Part shown: positions 3,026-10,262 of the stretch, in pieces
Position numbering within the stretch: position 1 is the first letter of the stretch
Layout of the letters: every line of letters starts with the position of its first letter
IMG/VR virus record: IMGVR_UViG_3300046170_000378
Location: 124,001 to 188,000 of that record
Origin: a virus
Direction: 5' to 3' (one strand)
DNA: 64,000 nucleotides
Notes under the pieces: generated by a model
What the model saw: only the letters and a program-made list of their open reading frames with translations
Database searches by the model: none
Told to the model about the DNA's origin: nothing
Translations under genes and position numbers: made by a program

Positions 3026-4442
3026 ATGTTACTAGACATAGAGCAAAAAGAAAACGAAGTTATTATTAGTTACTACGATAAGGAAGGTAAAGTTTCCTTT
3101 AAAAGATATTCTGTAAATAAATTTGAAAATTGGGTAGTTACTGAAGAAAAGGATCGTTGGAAAGATGTTAAGTTTAGGAACTGGGATAATAGACCTATTA
3201 AAAGATCTATCTCTAGAAGTTTTAATAAATTTAGCCTGCTCTATTTCATGGATTCATTGCCTGAAAAAGATCAAGAAGAAATCTTTGAATTTAATATGCC
3301 ACGTACATACTTTGTGGATATTGAAACTGAAATTGTAGATGGATTCCCAAAAGCAGAAGAAGCAAAAACTAGAATTCTATCGTTTTCTATTATTACACCC
3401 TGAGCGCAAAGCAATTGTTTTAGGTTTAGAAGACATGAGTTCTGATCAGATCAAGAAAATTGAAGAAGATACCAATAAACACTTCAAAGATTATGATCAA
3501 GACTGGGAATTTAGTTATTACAAGTTTGACGACGAGTATAACATGGTTTATAGTTTCTTACATAAGTTTTTACCTAAGTTCCCAATGATGACTGGTTGGA
3601 ACTTCATTAACTATGACTGGCAGTATATAGTAAACAGATGTAAGAGATTACAAATCGACCTGACTGATGTGGCTATCACTGGATCACTAGATCGAAATGA
3701 TAGTAGACCATTGCACATGGGTATTCTAGATTACATGCAATTATATGATAAATATGATAGATCAGTTGCAGTAAAAGAATCTAATTCTTTAGATTTTGTA
3801 TCGAGCTCAGTATTAGATGTTGCAAAAATCAAATACACTGGTGGATTACAAGAACTTTATGAAGATAATTTTCAAAAGTACATTTACTATAACGTAGTCG
3901 ATTCTTGTCTGGTATATTACATAGATCAACAACTTAGATCCATGGAAGTACTATTGACATTGGCAACTATCACAAGAATGCCGCTTTATAAAGCAGCATC
4001 TCCAGTGGCAGTAACTGAAGCACTTATAGCTAGAAAGCTAATAGGTCAGAATAAAAAAATTGGAATGGAATGGAATAAAGAAGATGCTAAAAAAGATGGC
4101 AAATTCGAAGGAGCATTTGTTAAACAGCCTATTGTAGGCTATTACTCTGGAGTTTCTGCGTTTGACTTTGCATCTCTGTATCCATCAATCATGCGTCAAT
4201 TTAATATATCTCCGGATGCATTTATTGAACAAGTGAATGAAATGGAAATTCCAGAAAGAAGAAAAGACAAAGATGTCATTGTCTGCGAAAACGGTGTTGT
4301 ATATAAGAAAGAAGATAGTATTCTTAAAAAGATACTAGCAGATTTATATGGTCAAAGAAAGGACTATAAAAGAACTTCTTACGAGTATTATGAAAAAGCC
4401 CATGAACTAGAAAAAAAATTAAAGAAAAAAATTAAGGTCTAA
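3026..4442 (+). CDS. 43A: DNA polymerase B family, N-terminal half (exonuclease and first palm segment), one frameshift
   Basis: This is the first half of a T4 gp43-type polymerase, about 472 residues once one frameshift at the CCC run 3398-3400 is repaired by removing a C. The exonuclease motifs are visible: YFVDIETE (Exo I), TGWNFINYDWQYI (Exo II) and YNVVDSCLVYYID (Exo III). Palm motif A is FDFASLYPSIMRQFNISP. The protein ends in a basic helix soon after QRKDYK, at the tip of the fingers. All three forward frames close within a few bases of 4442, so this end is real and not an indel effect. The fingers return helix, motif B and motif C are encoded 4.6 kb away at 9054-10262. No intein sequence is present. 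Confidence 0.88.
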
Positions 4443-4468
4443 TTTTTAGAAAAAAGAAATAGTAGCAT

Positions 4469-4478
4469 GATATATAAA
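4469..4478 (+). promoter_or_regulatory. Candidate late promoter upstream of nrdB
   Basis: The exact GATATATAAA motif seen before many structural genes occurs here, 115 bases before nrdB. An ATG just before it opens a 33-codon hydrophobic reading frame (4467-4568, stop before nrdB), which may be a small membrane peptide or chance. The remaining intergenic sequence contains a short palindrome (AGCAGCGCTGCT, 4484-4495). Confidence 0.35.
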
Positions 4479-4593
4479 ATCCTAGCAGCGCTGCTATTAT
4501 TCTTACATCTAAATAGATTAGACTGGGTCTTACATAAGGCCCATTGTAGTCTTAACTGGATTCTGTAAAAAAACTTAAAAAAATAATAGCAAT

Positions 4594-5604
4594 ATGTCAA
4601 ATCTCTTTAAAGAACGCTTAGAATACAAACCGTTCGAATATCCTGAATACTATAACGAAGGTTGGCTTAAACAGGCCCAAGCCTTTTGGTTACACACTGA
4701 AATCTCAATGCAAGGTGATGTAAAAGATTGGAATGAAAATCTTATGCCACATGAAAAAAACCTTGTAGGTAATATTCTTTTGGGTTTTGCTCAAACCGAA
4801 TGTGCAGTTTCAGACTATTGGACTAATATGGTAACGAGTTGGTTTCCTAAACATGAGATTAGACAAATGGCTATGATGTTTGGATCACAAGAAACAATAC
4901 ATGCAGTTGCATATTCATATCTTAATGAAACATTGGGCTTAGAGGATTTTGCAGCATTTTTACACGAACCTGCAATTGCCGAAAAGTTTGACCTATTAAC
5001 TTCAACTTCTGCAGATTACACACATGAAGATCTAGCAGTTAATGAAGATGCTAGAAAAGAAGTCGCTAGATCATTAGCTATTTTCTCAGCATTTGCTGAA
5101 GGTGTTTCACTCTACAGTTCTTTTGCGGTTTTATATAGTTTCCAAATGAGAAACTTACTTAAAGGAATTGGCCAACAAATGAAGTGGTCAGTAAGAGATG
5201 AGTCTTTGCACTCAAAGATGGGATGCCAGTTATTCAGACACATGTGTACAGAGTATCCAGAATTAAAGGATCAAGTAGAATCAGAAGTTTTAGAAGCTGC
5301 TAGATTAATGGTTGAAATGGAACACAAGTTTATTGATAAAATGTTTGAGCAAGGTGATCTTGCAAATATGGAAGCAGAAAATCTAAAACATTTTATTGTT
5401 AAAAGAGCTAATGAAAAGATTGCAGAGCTTGGATACACCGATGGTCCTTTTATGGAATTAGATGATGAAAAAGCAAGTAACTTAGATTGGTTTTATCACC
5501 TAACAGGTGGACATACGCACACCGACTTTTTTGCTATCAGACCTACTGACTACGCAAAAGCAGGAGAAGACGAGAATTGGGACGAGGATGACTTGTTCGA
5601 CTAA
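4594..5604 (+). CDS. nrdB: Class Ia ribonucleotide reductase small (beta) subunit
   Basis: A 336-residue protein with the complete di-iron set. Visible are the first glutamate in TEISMQGDVKDW, a second in AQTECAVSDYW, the E-x-x-H pair in GSQETIHAVAYSY with a following tyrosine as likely radical site, another glutamate in FAEGVSLYSS and the last E-x-x-H in RDESLHSKMG. The acidic C-terminus ending DEDDLFD is the usual tail that docks on NrdA. It supplies the tyrosyl radical for NDP reduction in the cytoplasm. nrdA follows after 14 bases, so the two are co-transcribed. The pair sits between the two halves of the polymerase gene. Confidence 0.93.
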   Translation: MSNLFKERLEYKPFEYPEYYNEGWLKQAQAFWLHTEISMQGDVKDWNENLMPHEKNLVGNILLGFAQTECAVSDYWTNMVTSWFPKHEIRQMAMMFGSQETIHAVAYSYLNETLGLEDFAAFLHEPAIAEKFDLLTSTSADYTHEDLAVNEDARKEVARSLAIFSAFAEGVSLYSSFAVLYSFQMRNLLKGIGQQMKWSVRDESLHSKMGCQLFRHMCTEYPELKDQVESEVLEAARLMVEMEHKFIDKMFEQGDLANMEAENLKHFIVKRANEKIAELGYTDGPFMELDDEKASNLDWFYHLTGGHTHTDFFAIRPTDYAKAGEDENWDEDDLFD

Positions 5605-5618
5605 TACAGATAATAAAA

Positions 5619-7456
5619 ATGAGTAAAGAAAATAAAGTAAACTATGGAGCTTCATTAGGTTGGGAGCTAGGTGTTGATTTCCCAACATGGGGAAACACAG
5701 AGATATACGTTAAGACAATAAGCAAAGGATATTGTTACCAAGATGAAACGCCAAAAGGATGCATATTGGAGAGTTGCAACTACAATTGCTAAAAGATTAG
5801 GTAAACCTGAACTTGCATCGAAATTTTTTGATTATATATGGAAAGGTTGGTTGAATCTAGCCTCACCGGTTCTTTCAAACACTGGGCTAGAAAGAGGACT
5901 TCCTATTTCATGTTTTGGTATTGATGTCGCTGATTCTATTCATGACATTGGAGCTAAAAACTTAGAAATGATGTTACTCGCTAAGCATGGTGGAGGTGTT
6001 GGACTAGGTATTAATCAAATTAGACCAGCGGGTGCAAAAATCACAGGTAATGGAACAAGCGACGGAGTCGTACCGTTCTGTAAAATATATGACTCTACAA
6101 TCCTTGCTACTAACCAAGGGTCTGTCAGACGTGGAGCTGCGTCAGTTAATATTGATATTGAACATGATGATTTCTGGGAATGGCTAGAAATTAGAGAACC
6201 TAAAGGTGATGTAAATAGACAATCTTTAAATCTACATCAATGTGCTGTTGTTCCAGATGGTTTTATGCAAAAAGTAGAAGCAGGTGATAAGGAATCTCGT
6301 AAAAGATGGGCTGCACTTTTAAGAAAGCGTAGATCTACAGGAGAACCATATATCATGTATAAAGGAAATGTAAATAGAGCTAATCCAGAAGCATATCACA
6401 AAAATGGATTAAAAGTTTATATGACCAATATTTGTTCTGAAATTACATTACACACAGATGAATCGCATTCATTTCGTATGTTGTTTATCATCTGTAAACC
6501 TTGGCAAAATACAACGAATGGAAAGATACTGATCTTATTTACACCGCGACTTGGTTTTTAGATGGTGTTATGGAAGAATTTATCCAAAAGGCTAAATTTA
6601 TGAGAGGTTTTGAAAACTCAATTAGATCAGCTGAAAAAGGAAGAGCATTAGGACTTGGTGTATTAGGATGGCATACATATCTACAAGAAAAAAATATTCC
6701 ATTTGATTCTCTATCTGCTCAATTTGAAACACGTAAAATATTTTCACAATTAAAGATAGAATCTGAAAGAGCATCTAGAGATTTAGCTACAGAATATGGT
6801 GAACCACTTTGGTGCGTAGGGACTGGAATGAGAAACACACACCTAAGAGCTATTGCTCCTACAGTAACTAATTCAAAACTTAGTGGAAATGTTTCACCTG
6901 GTATTGAGCCATGGGCAGCAAATCTATTAACAGAACAAACAGCTAAAGGGCACTTTCATCAGAAAAAACCCAACATTAGAAAAGGTTTTAGAAACTATCG
7001 GTAAAAATACTAAAACAACATGGGACAAGATATTAGAAGATGGTGGTTCGGTTTTAGGTTTACCATGGATTGAAGATTATTTTGTTTCCTTCGTTTTCAG
7101 ATAACGATGGAACTGCAGGTATTCAAAAACCATTGACTCAAAAACAATTGGAAAAATTACCAACGTTAGAGCAGGCCGATTATATTCCCATGAAAGATGT
7201 ATTTAGAACATTTAAGGAAATTAATCAATTAGATCTAGTAAGACAAGCGGGTATTAGACAACAATATGTTGATCAAGCTGCAAGTTTAAATCTAGCTTTC
7301 CCAAAAGAAGCTGAACCCAAATTCATAAATCAAGTACACTTAGAAGCATACAGAAAGGGCGTAAAAACACTTTACTATATGAGAACTGAAAGTGTACTTA
7401 GAGGAGATATTGCTGCATCTGCTACAGATCCCGACTGTGCAGCGTGTGACGGATAA
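5619..7456 (+). CDS. nrdA: Ribonucleotide reductase large (alpha) subunit, five frameshifts
   Basis: After repair this is about 610 residues, shorter than cellular NrdA (about 750) because the N-terminal ATP cone is absent; overall activity regulation is probably lost. Catalytic features remain: the redox cysteine in PISCFG, NICSE (Asn/Cys/Glu), CCLSSVNLAKY, the tyrosine pair in TLYYMRTESV and a C-terminal CAAC. The frame is broken at AAAA 5753-5756, TTT 6472-6474, CC 6499-6500, GGG 6958-6960 and TTTT 7080-7083. Each break is corrected by deleting one base, and the protein between them is conserved. Five identical-type breaks in one gene argue for consensus error. The start at 5619 follows the nrdB stop closely. 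Confidence 0.88.
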
Positions 7457-7512
7457 AAATAAAAAGGTGAGGTTTGAAGACCTCGTCTTAGGACCGGGAT
7501 AGTTCTCGGAAA

Positions 7513-7550
7513 GAGGCCAGACGTATCGCTACTGTCTGGCCTCGCTTTTT
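7513..7550 (+). terminator. Rho-independent terminator after nrdA
   Basis: A perfect 10-bp stem (GAGGCCAGAC at 7513-7522 with GTCTGGCCTC at 7534-7543) is followed by G-C and five T. A smaller hairpin (GAGGT/ACCTC) lies just upstream near 7474-7490, so the nrdA 3' end may be more structured than a simple terminator. Confidence 0.8.
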
Positions 7551-7600
7551 ATAAAGAATTATCATATTAACAATCAAATGTTAATTATTTTAGATAAAAA

Positions 7601-7630
7601 ATGAAACCTTTTTTGTTTACATGGTATAAT
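7601..7630 (+). promoter_or_regulatory. Promoter: ATGAAACC box and TATAAT
   Basis: ATGAAA at 7601-7606 and TATAAT at 7625-7630 with an 18-base spacer match the TTGAAAC-N18/19-TATAA family seen repeatedly in this window. It would transcribe the outer-membrane protein gene after the nrdA terminator. Confidence 0.55.
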
Positions 7631-7650
7631 AGACCAATTAACAAAGAAAA

Positions 7651-7743
7651 ATGAACACAACTTCATTATACTTATTAACAAAGACTGCTAAAAATAACAG
7701 CAGCACATCTATCTTTACTCCTAGAACTGTTATCACAGACTGA
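7651..7743 (+). CDS. Possible 30-residue leader peptide
   Basis: A 30-codon frame, rich in Ser and Thr, starts 20 bases after the TATAAT promoter and ends 30 bases before the outer-membrane protein gene. No domain is recognisable. It could be a leader peptide or chance coding in a 140-base untranslated region. Confidence 0.25.
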   Translation: MNTTSLYLLTKTAKNNSSTSIFTPRTVITD

Positions 7744-7772
7744 TAGATTTATTTTAACCAAAACATTTTAAT

Positions 7773-8189
7773 ATGAAAAATTTTATTTTAACATTAGCCC
7801 TTGTGGCATTGACAACATTCGGTGCAAATGCACAGAATGCAAAAGGTGACTGGTACGTAGGTACTGGCGATATTACTAACACGGCTTGGACTGAATTATC
7901 AATCCAACCAACAATCGGTTATGCATTTGCAGATAACTACATGGTGGGAATGAGCCTTTCACAGGCAGATTCAACTGAAGACATGTCTTTAGGCCTAGAA
8001 GGAAGATATTTCCACAAAGGGTTTTTTGGATATGTAGGACTTAATGATTTTGATTTCGATCAACTTCAATTAGGCGTAGGTAAAATGTTCGCATTCCATA
8101 AAGGATCTATGTTTGTAGATCCAAAAATCGTTTACGATTTAGGAACTGAGACAACTAACCTTCAAATCGGCTTTGGTTTAAAGTTCTAA
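7773..8189 (+). CDS. Small outer-membrane beta-barrel protein with signal peptide
   Basis: A 138-residue protein. Residues 1-20 are a classic Sec signal peptide (MKNFILTLALVALTTFGANA, cleavage expected before QNAKGD). The mature part alternates polar and hydrophobic residues in about eight short strands and ends in an aromatic residue (GFGLKF), the usual outer-membrane insertion signal. It resembles Bacteroidetes porin-family or OmpW/opacity-type barrels, not a virion protein. It is a single-gene unit with its own promoter and terminator, placed between replication genes. A role at the infected-cell surface, such as superinfection exclusion, receptor masking or envelope maintenance, is inference. 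It was possibly acquired from a host. Confidence 0.8.
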   Translation: MKNFILTLALVALTTFGANAQNAKGDWYVGTGDITNTAWTELSIQPTIGYAFADNYMVGMSLSQADSTEDMSLGLEGRYFHKGFFGYVGLNDFDFDQLQLGVGKMFAFHKGSMFVDPKIVYDLGTETTNLQIGFGLKF

Positions 8190-8214
8190 ACTAAAACTGA
8201 TTTGGTTAAATTAT

Positions 8215-8246
8215 AAGCCCGAGTTTCTAGGATCTCGGGCTTTTTT
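8215..8246 (+). terminator. Rho-independent terminator after the outer-membrane gene
   Basis: AGCCCGAG (8216-8223) pairs with CTCGGGCT (8234-8241) and runs into TTTTTT. The -35-like box of the clamp promoter begins two bases later. Confidence 0.85.
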
Positions 8247-8247
8247 A

Positions 8248-8277
8248 TTGAAACATTTTAATAAGACAAAGTATAAT
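8248..8277 (+). promoter_or_regulatory. Promoter for the sliding clamp: TTGAAAC and TATAAT
   Basis: TTGAAA at 8248-8253 and TATAAT at 8272-8277, 18 bases apart, 29 bases before the clamp start. This is the best match to the TTGAAAC/TATAA family in the window. Confidence 0.65.
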
Positions 8278-8306
8278 AATAAATCATTATCAAAAAACAA
8301 ATATTT

Positions 8307-9051
8307 ATGAAACTTAAATTAGATCGTATTGACCAGCATGCTTTGACAGCATTCATCAACAGAGTAAAACCGATTGATTCTTTCATTTACATGAAAATTG
8401 CAGATGGAACAATTAATTCAACAGTTTATCTTCCACAAAGAGATGCAGTAAAACATCACTCAGTAGAAGTAAGTACTATTTTTCAAGTAGAAGAATGGCC
8501 AGAAAACTGACAAAGAAATGAAAATTGCATTCTTTGAAGGTAACAAAGTAATCGAAGCTATTAAGCACTTTGATGCAGATGCAATTAAAGGTGAAATTGA
8601 ATTCATCGAAAACGACAATGAATTAGTAGCATCTTCGCTACGTATTTTCAATGATGAGCTAGAAATTACTTTAGCTTGTTCAGAGCCTTCACTTGGCTTT
8701 AAAGATCTTACACAAGATCAGATTGATGCAATCTTTGCAAGAGAAGATAGTAAATTTGACTTTAGCTTTGACACTCACATGATAGGTAAAGTTAAAAATC
8801 TATTTTCACTAGATAAAGATGAAACATTTAGCATTAAATCTGATGTATCAGGTGTAAGCGTAAGTGGTAAATCATTTAGCGTTGTAATCAATCCAGATAC
8901 AAGCGGAAATGGTGAAGTAACAGTTTATAAAAAGTACTTAAGCTTACTTGACAAAGACGAACAAACAGTATATGTTTCAGGATCAAAGGTTGTTTTTAAC
9001 TCCAATGACACAAATACATTACTAACTGTTTCAACTTGTCAAACAGCATAA
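8307..9051 (+). CDS. 45: Sliding clamp, T4 gp45-like, one frameshift
   Basis: Two adjoining segments (67 and 177 residues) join into one clamp of about 247 residues (T4 gp45 has 228) when one A is removed from the AAAA run 8503-8506, giving EEWPETDKEMKIAFFEG. The alternating beta-strand/helix pattern (KIAFFEGNKVIEAIKHF, then the VSGKSFSVVINPD and TVYVSGSKVVFNSNDTNTLL strands) fits the gp45/PCNA fold. It would tether the polymerase and, as in T4, act as mobile activator of late transcription with gp33 and gp55. The C-terminal polymerase gene starts two bases after its stop, so the two are translationally linked. Confidence 0.78.
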
Positions 9052-9053
9052 GT

Positions 9054-10262
9054 ATGAACATCGAAGCGCTAGAAAATAAATCTATCGAGGAATTGACTGA
9101 TAATGAGGCGAAGCTGCTTGTAGATCACTACAAGCAGCTTTCAGCCAAATATACAGCATATGAACAAGCAGTTAAGTTAACACTAAACTCGATCTACGGA
9201 GCCTTCGGTAATAAGTGGTTCCACTTTTTTAATATTGACATTGCCGAGTCAATTACAAAACAAGGCAAAAATGCAATTCTCTACTCAGAAACAATTCTTA
9301 ATAAATATGTTAATGAGTTTTGGCACAAAGACACAGCAGTCCACGCACATTTCGGTATCAAAGTAAAGGGTAAAATTGAAAAACCTGCAGTAATTTATAT
9401 TGATACAGATTCATGTTACGTACAGTTTCAGGATTTGTATGAATCAATAATTTGGCCAGAAGAAACCGAGAAGATGGAAATTGATGTGTTTATTTTAGCA
9501 CTTTATGGATTTAGGCTTAAAGATTATATAGCTAAATGTATGGAGAAGTATGCAGAAAAAAGAAACACAGATAATTATTTAATATTCGAACTAGAGGCGC
9601 TCGCGTACAATGGTATTTGGATGTCCAAGAAAAAGTATATTCAAAACATAGCATGGGACGATAAGTTAGAAATTACAGATCGTCACAAATCATTGAAGAA
9701 AATTAAGACAATTGGATTTGATACGATTCAATCTTCAACGCCCAAATTTGTTAGAGAAAAACTAGTAGAAGCACTTAAAATTATCTTTAAAAGTAGAGTA
9801 ACTCCAACTGCAGAAGATCTACAAGCATTGGTTGTTTTTATGAAAGAAACCAAGAAACAATTCAAACTGGCAGATATTGATGAGATTTCATTTAATAGAA
9901 GAACCAACAATATCGATAAGTATATTGTAGATGATCAGACAGAATTTCAGATAGGACTAAAATGTCCAGCCAATGTTAAAGCCGCAGGATATTATAACTA
10001 TCTACTAAATAACAATAAAAAGTATAAAAACAAATATAAGGTTATTGGTAACGGTGAAAAGCTAAAGATTTATAACTGTAAATCACCAATATCAGAGGTT
10101 TATGCATATATGCCAAATGAACACCCTTATGAAATTGCTCCAGAAATTGATTACGACACTCAATTTGAAAAAGCAATGATTGATCCTCTTAATAGAGTAT
10201 TGACAGCAATTGGTCTACAAACACTAGACACTAATCTAATTTACGCATCGTCGTTATTTTAA
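9054..10262 (+). CDS. 43B: DNA polymerase B family, C-terminal half (fingers, motifs B and C, thumb)
   Basis: About 402 residues completing the T4 gp43-type polymerase begun at 3026. The start is taken as ATG 9054, two bases after the clamp stop; an upstream TTG in frame is less likely. After a short acidic lead the fingers helix and motif B (KLTLNSIYGAFGN) appear, then motif C with the catalytic aspartates in YIDTDSCYVQF, then the WMSKKKYIQN block and thumb. The final IYASSLF resembles the clamp-binding tail of T4 polymerase (LDFLFG). Together the halves total about 875 residues against 898 in T4, with no core motif missing. They presumably assemble as a heterodimer. Confidence 0.9.
   Translation: MNIEALENKSIEELTDNEAKLLVDHYKQLSAKYTAYEQAVKLTLNSIYGAFGNKWFHFFNIDIAESITKQGKNAILYSETILNKYVNEFWHKDTAVHAHFGIKVKGKIEKPAVIYIDTDSCYVQFQDLYESIIWPEETEKMEIDVFILALYGFRLKDYIAKCMEKYAEKRNTDNYLIFELEALAYNGIWMSKKKYIQNIAWDDKLEITDRHKSLKKIKTIGFDTIQSSTPKFVREKLVEALKIIFKSRVTPTAEDLQALVVFMKETKKQFKLADIDEISFNRRTNNIDKYIVDDQTEFQIGLKCPANVKAAGYYNYLLNNNKKYKNKYKVIGNGEKLKIYNCKSPISEVYAYMPNEHPYEIAPEIDYDTQFEKAMIDPLNRVLTAIGLQTLDTNLIYASSLF

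What the first reader, a model, noticed from the sequence alone, without database searches (positions are those of the whole stretch)
3026..10262. Gene 43 split at the fingers tip, with RNR, an outer-membrane protein and the sliding clamp between the halves
Seen: exonuclease motifs and palm motif A end in one gene at 4442; motifs B and C and the thumb begin in another at 9054 with its own ATG. All forward frames close right after 4442, so the break is not one of the indel artefacts. The halves together cover a full T4-type polymerase (about 875 residues). Established: bipartite gene 43 has been reported in some T4-related Aeromonas phages. Unusual here: 4.6 kb with nrdB, nrdA, an OMP gene and gp45 lies between, and half B follows the clamp by two bases. 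Inferred: the halves form an obligate heterodimer, with half B made together with the clamp.
Basis: partly seen in the sequence, partly recalled or inferred. Interest (0 to 1): 0.8.

Follow-up and report, generated by a model that had tools for sequence, protein, structure and literature searches.

The report
Two-gene T4-type phage DNA polymerase
The replicative DNA polymerase of this marine T4-related phage is made as two separate proteins cut at the tip of the 'fingers'. The cut is real and shared by a large family of phages, mostly from Bacteroidota hosts, in which the second half nearly always follows the sliding-clamp gene.

Summary
Half A (3026-4442) carries the exonuclease and motif A. 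Half B (9054-10262) carries motifs B and C and the thumb. They are separate genes in 80 non-redundant loci, including 99%-identical contigs that lack this window's single-base insertions, so neither misassembly nor indels explain it. No complete polymerase was found elsewhere in the 212-kb record.

The break maps to RB69 residues 509/510, between the two fingers helices. The same break is found in cultured phages PTm1, pT24, PAU and MA9V-1, in Lak megaphages and in 460-735 kb huge phages; one 100%-supported clade holds all of these and is almost entirely split. It also recurs in Aeromonas 44RR and cyanophage S-CREM2.

The clamp lies directly upstream of half B (-14 to +16 nt) in 68 of 80 loci. 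The finding's 177-aa clamp is a frameshifted reading of a 247-aa gene (8307-9051), whose predicted fold is PCNA-like. Best explanation: an obligate two-subunit polymerase with an active site shared between chains. Split gp43 is already known (phage 25 halves co-purify and are active), so this is a new variant of a known kind. Still open: biochemistry of this pair, and why the split persists.

The parts
3026..4442 (+). gp43 half A: N-terminal domain, 3'-5' exonuclease motifs I-III, palm motif A, first fingers helix; reads as two ORFs here because of one extra base at 3398
   Evidence: PF00136 and PF03104, phrog_2062 and phrog_262; intact 471-aa ORF in L003; insertion listed
4594..5604 (+). nrdB, ribonucleotide reductase small chain, between the halves
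   Evidence: PF00268 E=1e-56; between A and B in most relatives
5620..7456 (+). nrdA, large chain, broken into pieces here by five single-base insertions
   Evidence: insertions at 5757, 6472, 6503, 6948, 7090 against L003; ORFs; nrdA between the halves in relatives
7773..8189 (+). small exported outer-membrane-like protein (138 aa); an optional passenger present only in some relatives
   Evidence: signal-peptide-like start; present in 15 of 74 gene-order strings; no Pfam or PHROG hit
8307..9051 (+). sliding clamp (PCNA/gp45-like), 247 aa when read as in L003; frame broken here by one extra base at 8502
   Evidence: AlphaFold2 model of the L003 copy pLDDT 91, pTM 0.85; Foldseek best hit archaeal PCNA E=8e-12, probability 1.00
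9054..10262 (+). gp43 half B: second fingers helix with motif B, motif C, thumb, and a C-terminal LF tail that may bind the clamp
   Evidence: PF00136, phrog_1918 and phrog_262; catalytic residues; conserved tail NLIYxxxLF

Best explanation
This is a two-subunit T4-type family B DNA polymerase. Half A supplies the N-terminal domain, the whole proofreading exonuclease and the palm strand with motif A (catalytic Asp 411 in RB69 numbering). Half B supplies the second fingers helix with motif B (Lys 560), the palm strand with motif C (Asp 621/623), the KKxY motif and the thumb. The break lies in the loop at the fingers tip, away from the DNA and the active site, so the two chains can re-form the normal fold without a covalent link. 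Polymerase activity should require both chains. Half B is probably translated by coupling with the sliding clamp that ends 2 nt before it, so the chain carrying the likely clamp-binding tail is made with the clamp. The split arose early in a large T4-related phage clade that mostly infects Bacteroidota. One likely path is relocation of half A away from an ancestral clamp-gp43-uvsX-gp41 order, leaving half B in the original slot. It then persisted, and at least once appears to have been re-fused. Shown: the sequences, the break, conservation, selection and clamp adjacency. Inferred: assembly, activity, coupled translation and the evolutionary path.
For: Break at RB69 509/510, with both termini at the fingers tip. 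All mapped catalytic residues present. 80 non-redundant loci with separate A and B ORFs. The split-rich clade is supported at 100 and 1.0 in two trees. dN/dS about 0.02 in both halves. Mirror-tree r = 0.95. Clamp immediately upstream of B in 68 of 80 loci; in pT24 the clamp stop overlaps the B start (TAATG). Contig L133 has clamp followed by a single fused 889-aa gp43, in which the A-end and B-start sequences join directly, and it is nested with split relatives. Half B of the window lies before uvsX and gp41, like intact gp43 in S-PM2. Precedent: the 43A and 43B proteins of Aeromonas phage 25 co-purify and have DNA polymerase activity (PMC2988022).
Against: No biochemistry exists for this pair and the complex could not be modelled here. 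The deep branching order inside the clade is weakly supported (63, 0.26), so a single origin is likely but not proven. L252 is intact at the tip and broken elsewhere. Translational coupling rests on spacing only. The C-terminal clamp-binding tail is inferred from conservation and position.
Confidence: 0.9

Rival explanations
1. The two pieces are rejoined after expression by a split intein or by RNA trans-splicing, giving one polymerase chain.
For: Split inteins do break half B at motif C in the relatives PTm1, Lak-A2, Lak-B5 and LR756500, and split inteins in phage PolB have been reported (MIJ3, PMC6892783).
Against: No Intein_splicing match in the window's own record or in either half. Half A ends 3 residues or so after the conserved helix, with a stop codon, and half B starts with its own ATG. 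No intron family match in the window. The inteins of relatives sit at a different site.
Confidence: 0.04
2. The split is an assembly or sequencing artefact of this contig.
For: The window does carry seven single-base insertions in 13.5 kb relative to L003.
Against: L003 and L004 (99% identical in half B) and dozens of other contigs, plus cultured PTm1, pT24, PAU and MA9V-1, have the same two genes. In L003 all frames close after half A.
Confidence: 0.01
3. The halves work separately: half A as a free proofreading or repair exonuclease, half B inactive or regulatory, with another polymerase replicating the genome.
For: The exonuclease domain is complete within half A.
Against: Polymerase catalytic residues are split between the chains yet all conserved; selection on half B is as strong as on half A; no intact family B polymerase in the record. 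Polymerases of other families were not searched for in the record.
Confidence: 0.04

Closest known systems
Split gene 43 (43A/43B) of Aeromonas phages 25 and 44RR (Petrov, Ratnayaka and Karam 2010, cited in PMC2988022)
   Same: T4-type gp43 cut at the same fingers-tip position (RB69 512/514 in 44RR); halves of phage 25 co-purify and polymerise DNA
   Different: There the halves are adjacent, separated by an untranslated stretch or a seg homing endonuclease gene; here 4.6 kb with RNR and clamp intervenes, and 44RR groups with unsplit T4 and RB69, so it is a separate origin
Tenacibaculum phage PTm1 'DNA polymerase' / 'intein-containing split DNA polymerase precursor' (AP019524)
   Same: Same fingers-tip break, with the clamp between A and B; same clade
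   Different: PTm1 half B is broken a second time by a split intein at motif C, and nuclease-like ORFs sit at both breaks; the window has neither
Prevotella Lak megaphages and 460-735 kb huge phages LR7565xx
   Same: Same break; same clade
   Different: Halves mostly lie 100-600 kb apart in the deposited records, some on opposite strands; Lak-A2, Lak-B5 and LR756500 add the motif-C split intein. In LR756500 the halves are only about 10 kb apart
Rhodothermus phage RM378 two-gene polymerase
   Same: Exonuclease and polymerase parts in separate genes 57 kb apart
   Different: Break falls between exonuclease and palm, so motifs A to C stay in one chain
Synechococcus phage S-CREM2 'DNA polymerase subunit A/subunit B' (OR473000)
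   Same: Fingers-tip break (RB69 527/528)
   Different: Nested among intact cyanophage gp43; halves 0.4 kb apart; no clamp between

Membership tests
T4-type gp43 family B DNA polymerase | Exo I-III residues (D114, E116, D222, Y323, D327) | tested here: met
T4-type gp43 family B DNA polymerase | Motifs A, B, C and KKxY (D411, K560, N564, D621, D623, K706) | tested here: met
T4-type gp43 family B DNA polymerase | One polypeptide chain | tested here: not met
   two genes in the window and relatives
Split gp43 of the Aeromonas 25/44RR type | Break at the fingers tip | tested here: met
Split gp43 of the Aeromonas 25/44RR type | Halves adjacent, with only an untranslated spacer or homing endonuclease between | tested here: not met
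   nrdB, nrdA, OMP-like gene and clamp between
Split gp43 of the Aeromonas 25/44RR type | Halves co-assemble and polymerise | not testable with these tools
   reported for phage 25 (PMC2988022), not for this clade
Fractured gene with split intein | Intein-N after half A and intein-C before half B | tested here: not met
PCNA/gp45 sliding clamp (neighbour gene) | Clamp fold | tested here: met
   model pLDDT 91; Foldseek to PCNA E=8e-12, TM about 0.64-0.70
PCNA/gp45 sliding clamp (neighbour gene) | Sequence homology to T4 gp45 | tested here: inconclusive
   hhalign not significant; PCNA entries are weak top hits

The most novel reading that the evidence does not exclude
A two-chain replicative family B polymerase is the stable ancestral form of a very large phage clade spanning 200-735 kb genomes, kept through deep divergence, with the thumb-bearing half genetically locked to the sliding clamp. 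The fingers tip would then be a preferred natural breakpoint used repeatedly in evolution. In some members the halves have drifted hundreds of kilobases apart and one half is assembled from two pieces by a split intein, giving a three-gene polymerase.
Probability: 0.7. Interest if true: 0.65.

Novelty: new variant of a known kind. Interest (0 to 1): 0.58.

Why it matters
Split gp43 was described as an oddity of a few Aeromonas phages caused by mobile DNA. Here it is the normal state of a broad, abundant group of marine, gut and huge phages, under strong purifying selection. That makes it testable why a two-chain replicase is kept, and whether half B-clamp coupling matters for holoenzyme assembly. 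The pair is also a naturally evolved split polymerase, with a fused relative (L133) as an internal control. Annotators currently list the halves as two different polymerases (MA9V-1: 'DNA polymerase II' and 'DNA polymerase family B'), so polymerase-based trees and searches can miss or double-count these phages.

Tried and rejected
Assembly artefact: rejected by independent contigs and isolates. Indel artefact: rejected, since L003 lacks the insertions and keeps the break. Split intein at the fingers tip: no match. Group I intron at the break: none in the window, L003 or L121; L271, a cyanophage-like locus, has one, so L271, and L268 which lacks motif B in its second ORF, were not counted as clean tip splits. 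First structure prediction used the truncated 177-aa clamp and failed (pLDDT 41); the full-length gene solved this. Direct profile match of the clamp to T4 gp45 was not significant. Search of GTDB genomes for half B found no relative, so no direct host link. Literature searches for this clade's split found nothing beyond phage 25/44RR, the MIJ3 intein and the jumbo-phage review; subscription papers could not be checked.

Full report
Observation. The window is bases 124001-188000 of a 212,342-base IMG/VR record. The record encodes a T4-type Gp23 major capsid protein (E=3e-46). Half A of gp43 spans 3026-4442 and half B spans 9054-10262. Pfam DNA_pol_B matches half A up to profile position 137 and half B from 152 to 237. 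PHROGs matches half A to phrog_2062 (502 positions) and half B to phrog_1918 (382 positions), each shorter than the full-length family phrog_262 (856 positions) that both also match. Own-record searches find only these two halves, plus a small separate exonuclease-like ORF far away. The stated refuter, a complete polymerase elsewhere, was not found.

Artefact check. Against contig L003 (98.6% nucleotide identity over 13.5 kb), the window has seven single-base insertions: 3398 in half A; 5757, 6472, 6503, 6948 and 7090 in nrdA; and 8502 in the clamp gene. It also lacks one base in an A-run at 10260. L003 has half A as one 471-aa ORF and all frames close just after it. So the indels are peculiar to this record and the A/B break is not one of them. 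The 177-aa clamp named in the finding is the C-terminal part of a 247-aa gene, whose start in the window is 8307.

Breadth. A scan of IMG/VR with half B returned 219 relatives, 80 of them fetched. Nearly all loci that extend far enough upstream carry half A there, with an RNR small-chain gene between. With profile-guided scans and cultured phages added, 80 non-redundant loci hold A and B as separate ORFs. Leaving out the six cyanophage-like loci, the A-to-B distance in the 72 loci with A upstream of B runs from 1.0 to 7.1 kb, median 4.2 kb. The commonest gene order between the halves is nrdB-nrdA-clamp; the OMP-like gene is an optional passenger. L121 has only the clamp between.

Cultured relatives with the same arrangement are Tenacibaculum phages PTm1 and pT24, phage PAU (host given as Sphingomonas) and Chryseobacterium phage MA9V-1. 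In Lak-A2 and four of the five LR huge-phage genomes examined, the halves lie roughly 100-600 kb apart in the deposited records; in LR756500 and Lak-B5 they are about 10 kb apart.

Position of the break. In an alignment with RB69 gp43, half A ends and half B begins at residues 509/510 in the window, and at 508-527 in all the others. That is always between the fingers helix bearing R482 and K486 and the helix bearing K560. 44RR (512/514) and S-CREM2 (527/528) break at the same place but sit among unsplit polymerases in the trees. Contigs L256, L274 and L275 are similar. This points to repeated independent breaks at one permissive spot.

Phylogeny. Concatenated trees put the window's group, Lak, the huge phages, PAU, PTm1, pT24 and MA9V-1 in one clade on the longest internal branch (support 100 and 1.0). 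Two members are not cut at the tip. L133 has a fused 889-aa gp43 directly after the clamp, and groups with split L248 and Lak at 98 and 0.995. Its linker reads as the half A C-terminus followed by the half B N-terminal extension, which suggests re-fusion. L252 is intact at the tip but broken before motif C. Deep branching inside the clade is weak, so one split with one or two re-fusions is favoured but not proven.

Function. All mapped exonuclease and polymerase residues are conserved across the split. dN/dS is about 0.02 in each half among close relatives, and distances in A and B trees correlate at r = 0.95. Because motif A is in chain A and motifs B and C are in chain B, an active site needs both (inference from known RB69 structure). 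For Aeromonas phage 25 the two halves co-purify and have polymerase activity (PMC2988022).

Clamp coupling. The clamp gene ends within -14 to +16 nt of half B in 68 of 80 loci, with start-stop overlap in pT24. The clamp's identity, unproven by sequence, is supported by a confident model of the L003 copy (pLDDT 91) whose best structural matches are archaeal PCNAs. Half B ends in a conserved NLIYxxxLF tail, a candidate clamp-binding peptide like the C-terminus of T4 gp43 (inference). Half B in the window still precedes uvsX and gp41, as intact gp43 does in S-PM2, so half A is the part that most likely moved.

Mobile elements. Relatives PTm1, Lak-A2, Lak-B5 and LR756500 carry a second break in half B at motif C, with split-intein sequence around it. 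PTm1 has a nuclease-like ORF at each break: ORF-240, annotated as a VSR endonuclease, and ORF-238, judged by eye to resemble it, with no nuclease family among its Pfam matches. The window has no intein. This fits, but does not prove, an origin of the breaks through homing-endonuclease activity.

Verdict. The finding is confirmed and generalised. It is a new variant of a known kind (split gp43), with broad conservation and clamp linkage as the new elements. Key open tests are biochemical.

Noticed in passing
window 3398, 5757, 6472, 6503, 6948, 7090, 8502: Seven single-base insertions relative to L003, all inside genes; looks like sequencing or assembly error in this record and will break many ORF calls.
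   Followed up: yes
L112:8696-11502 (PTm1), L088:3908-6056 (Lak-A2), L113:2770-6549 (Lak-B5), L086:8787-12199 (LR756500): Split intein at motif C of half B, making gp43 a three-gene protein in these relatives; nuclease-like ORF between the two pieces in PTm1, another ORF there in Lak-B5.
   Followed up: partly
L112:7630-8685 (PTm1 ORF-238): ORF lying exactly at the fingers-tip break, between clamp and half B; resembles the VSR-type nuclease ORF-240 by eye, with no nuclease family among its Pfam matches; a possible relic of how the split arose.
   Followed up: partly
L133:7740-11167: Natural fused gp43 directly behind the clamp, nested within the split clade; apparent re-fusion.
   Followed up: yes
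L132:3924-7695 and L159:9923-13694: Permuted gene orders: clamp-B-A with B and A adjacent in L132, and B-A-clamp in L159.
   Followed up: no
L252:9956-14450: gp43 intact at the fingers tip but broken before motif C, in the same clade.
   Followed up: no
G000:C1:44105-44698 (L278), outside the window: Separate 197-aa exonuclease-like protein with a weak gp43 exonuclease match; similar short matches in several relatives.
   Followed up: no
L027, L028, L031, L036-L039, L041, L044, L049, L051, L053-L056, L072: nrdB between the halves is replaced by a very different nrdB (about 27-30% identity) while its location stays the same.
   Followed up: no
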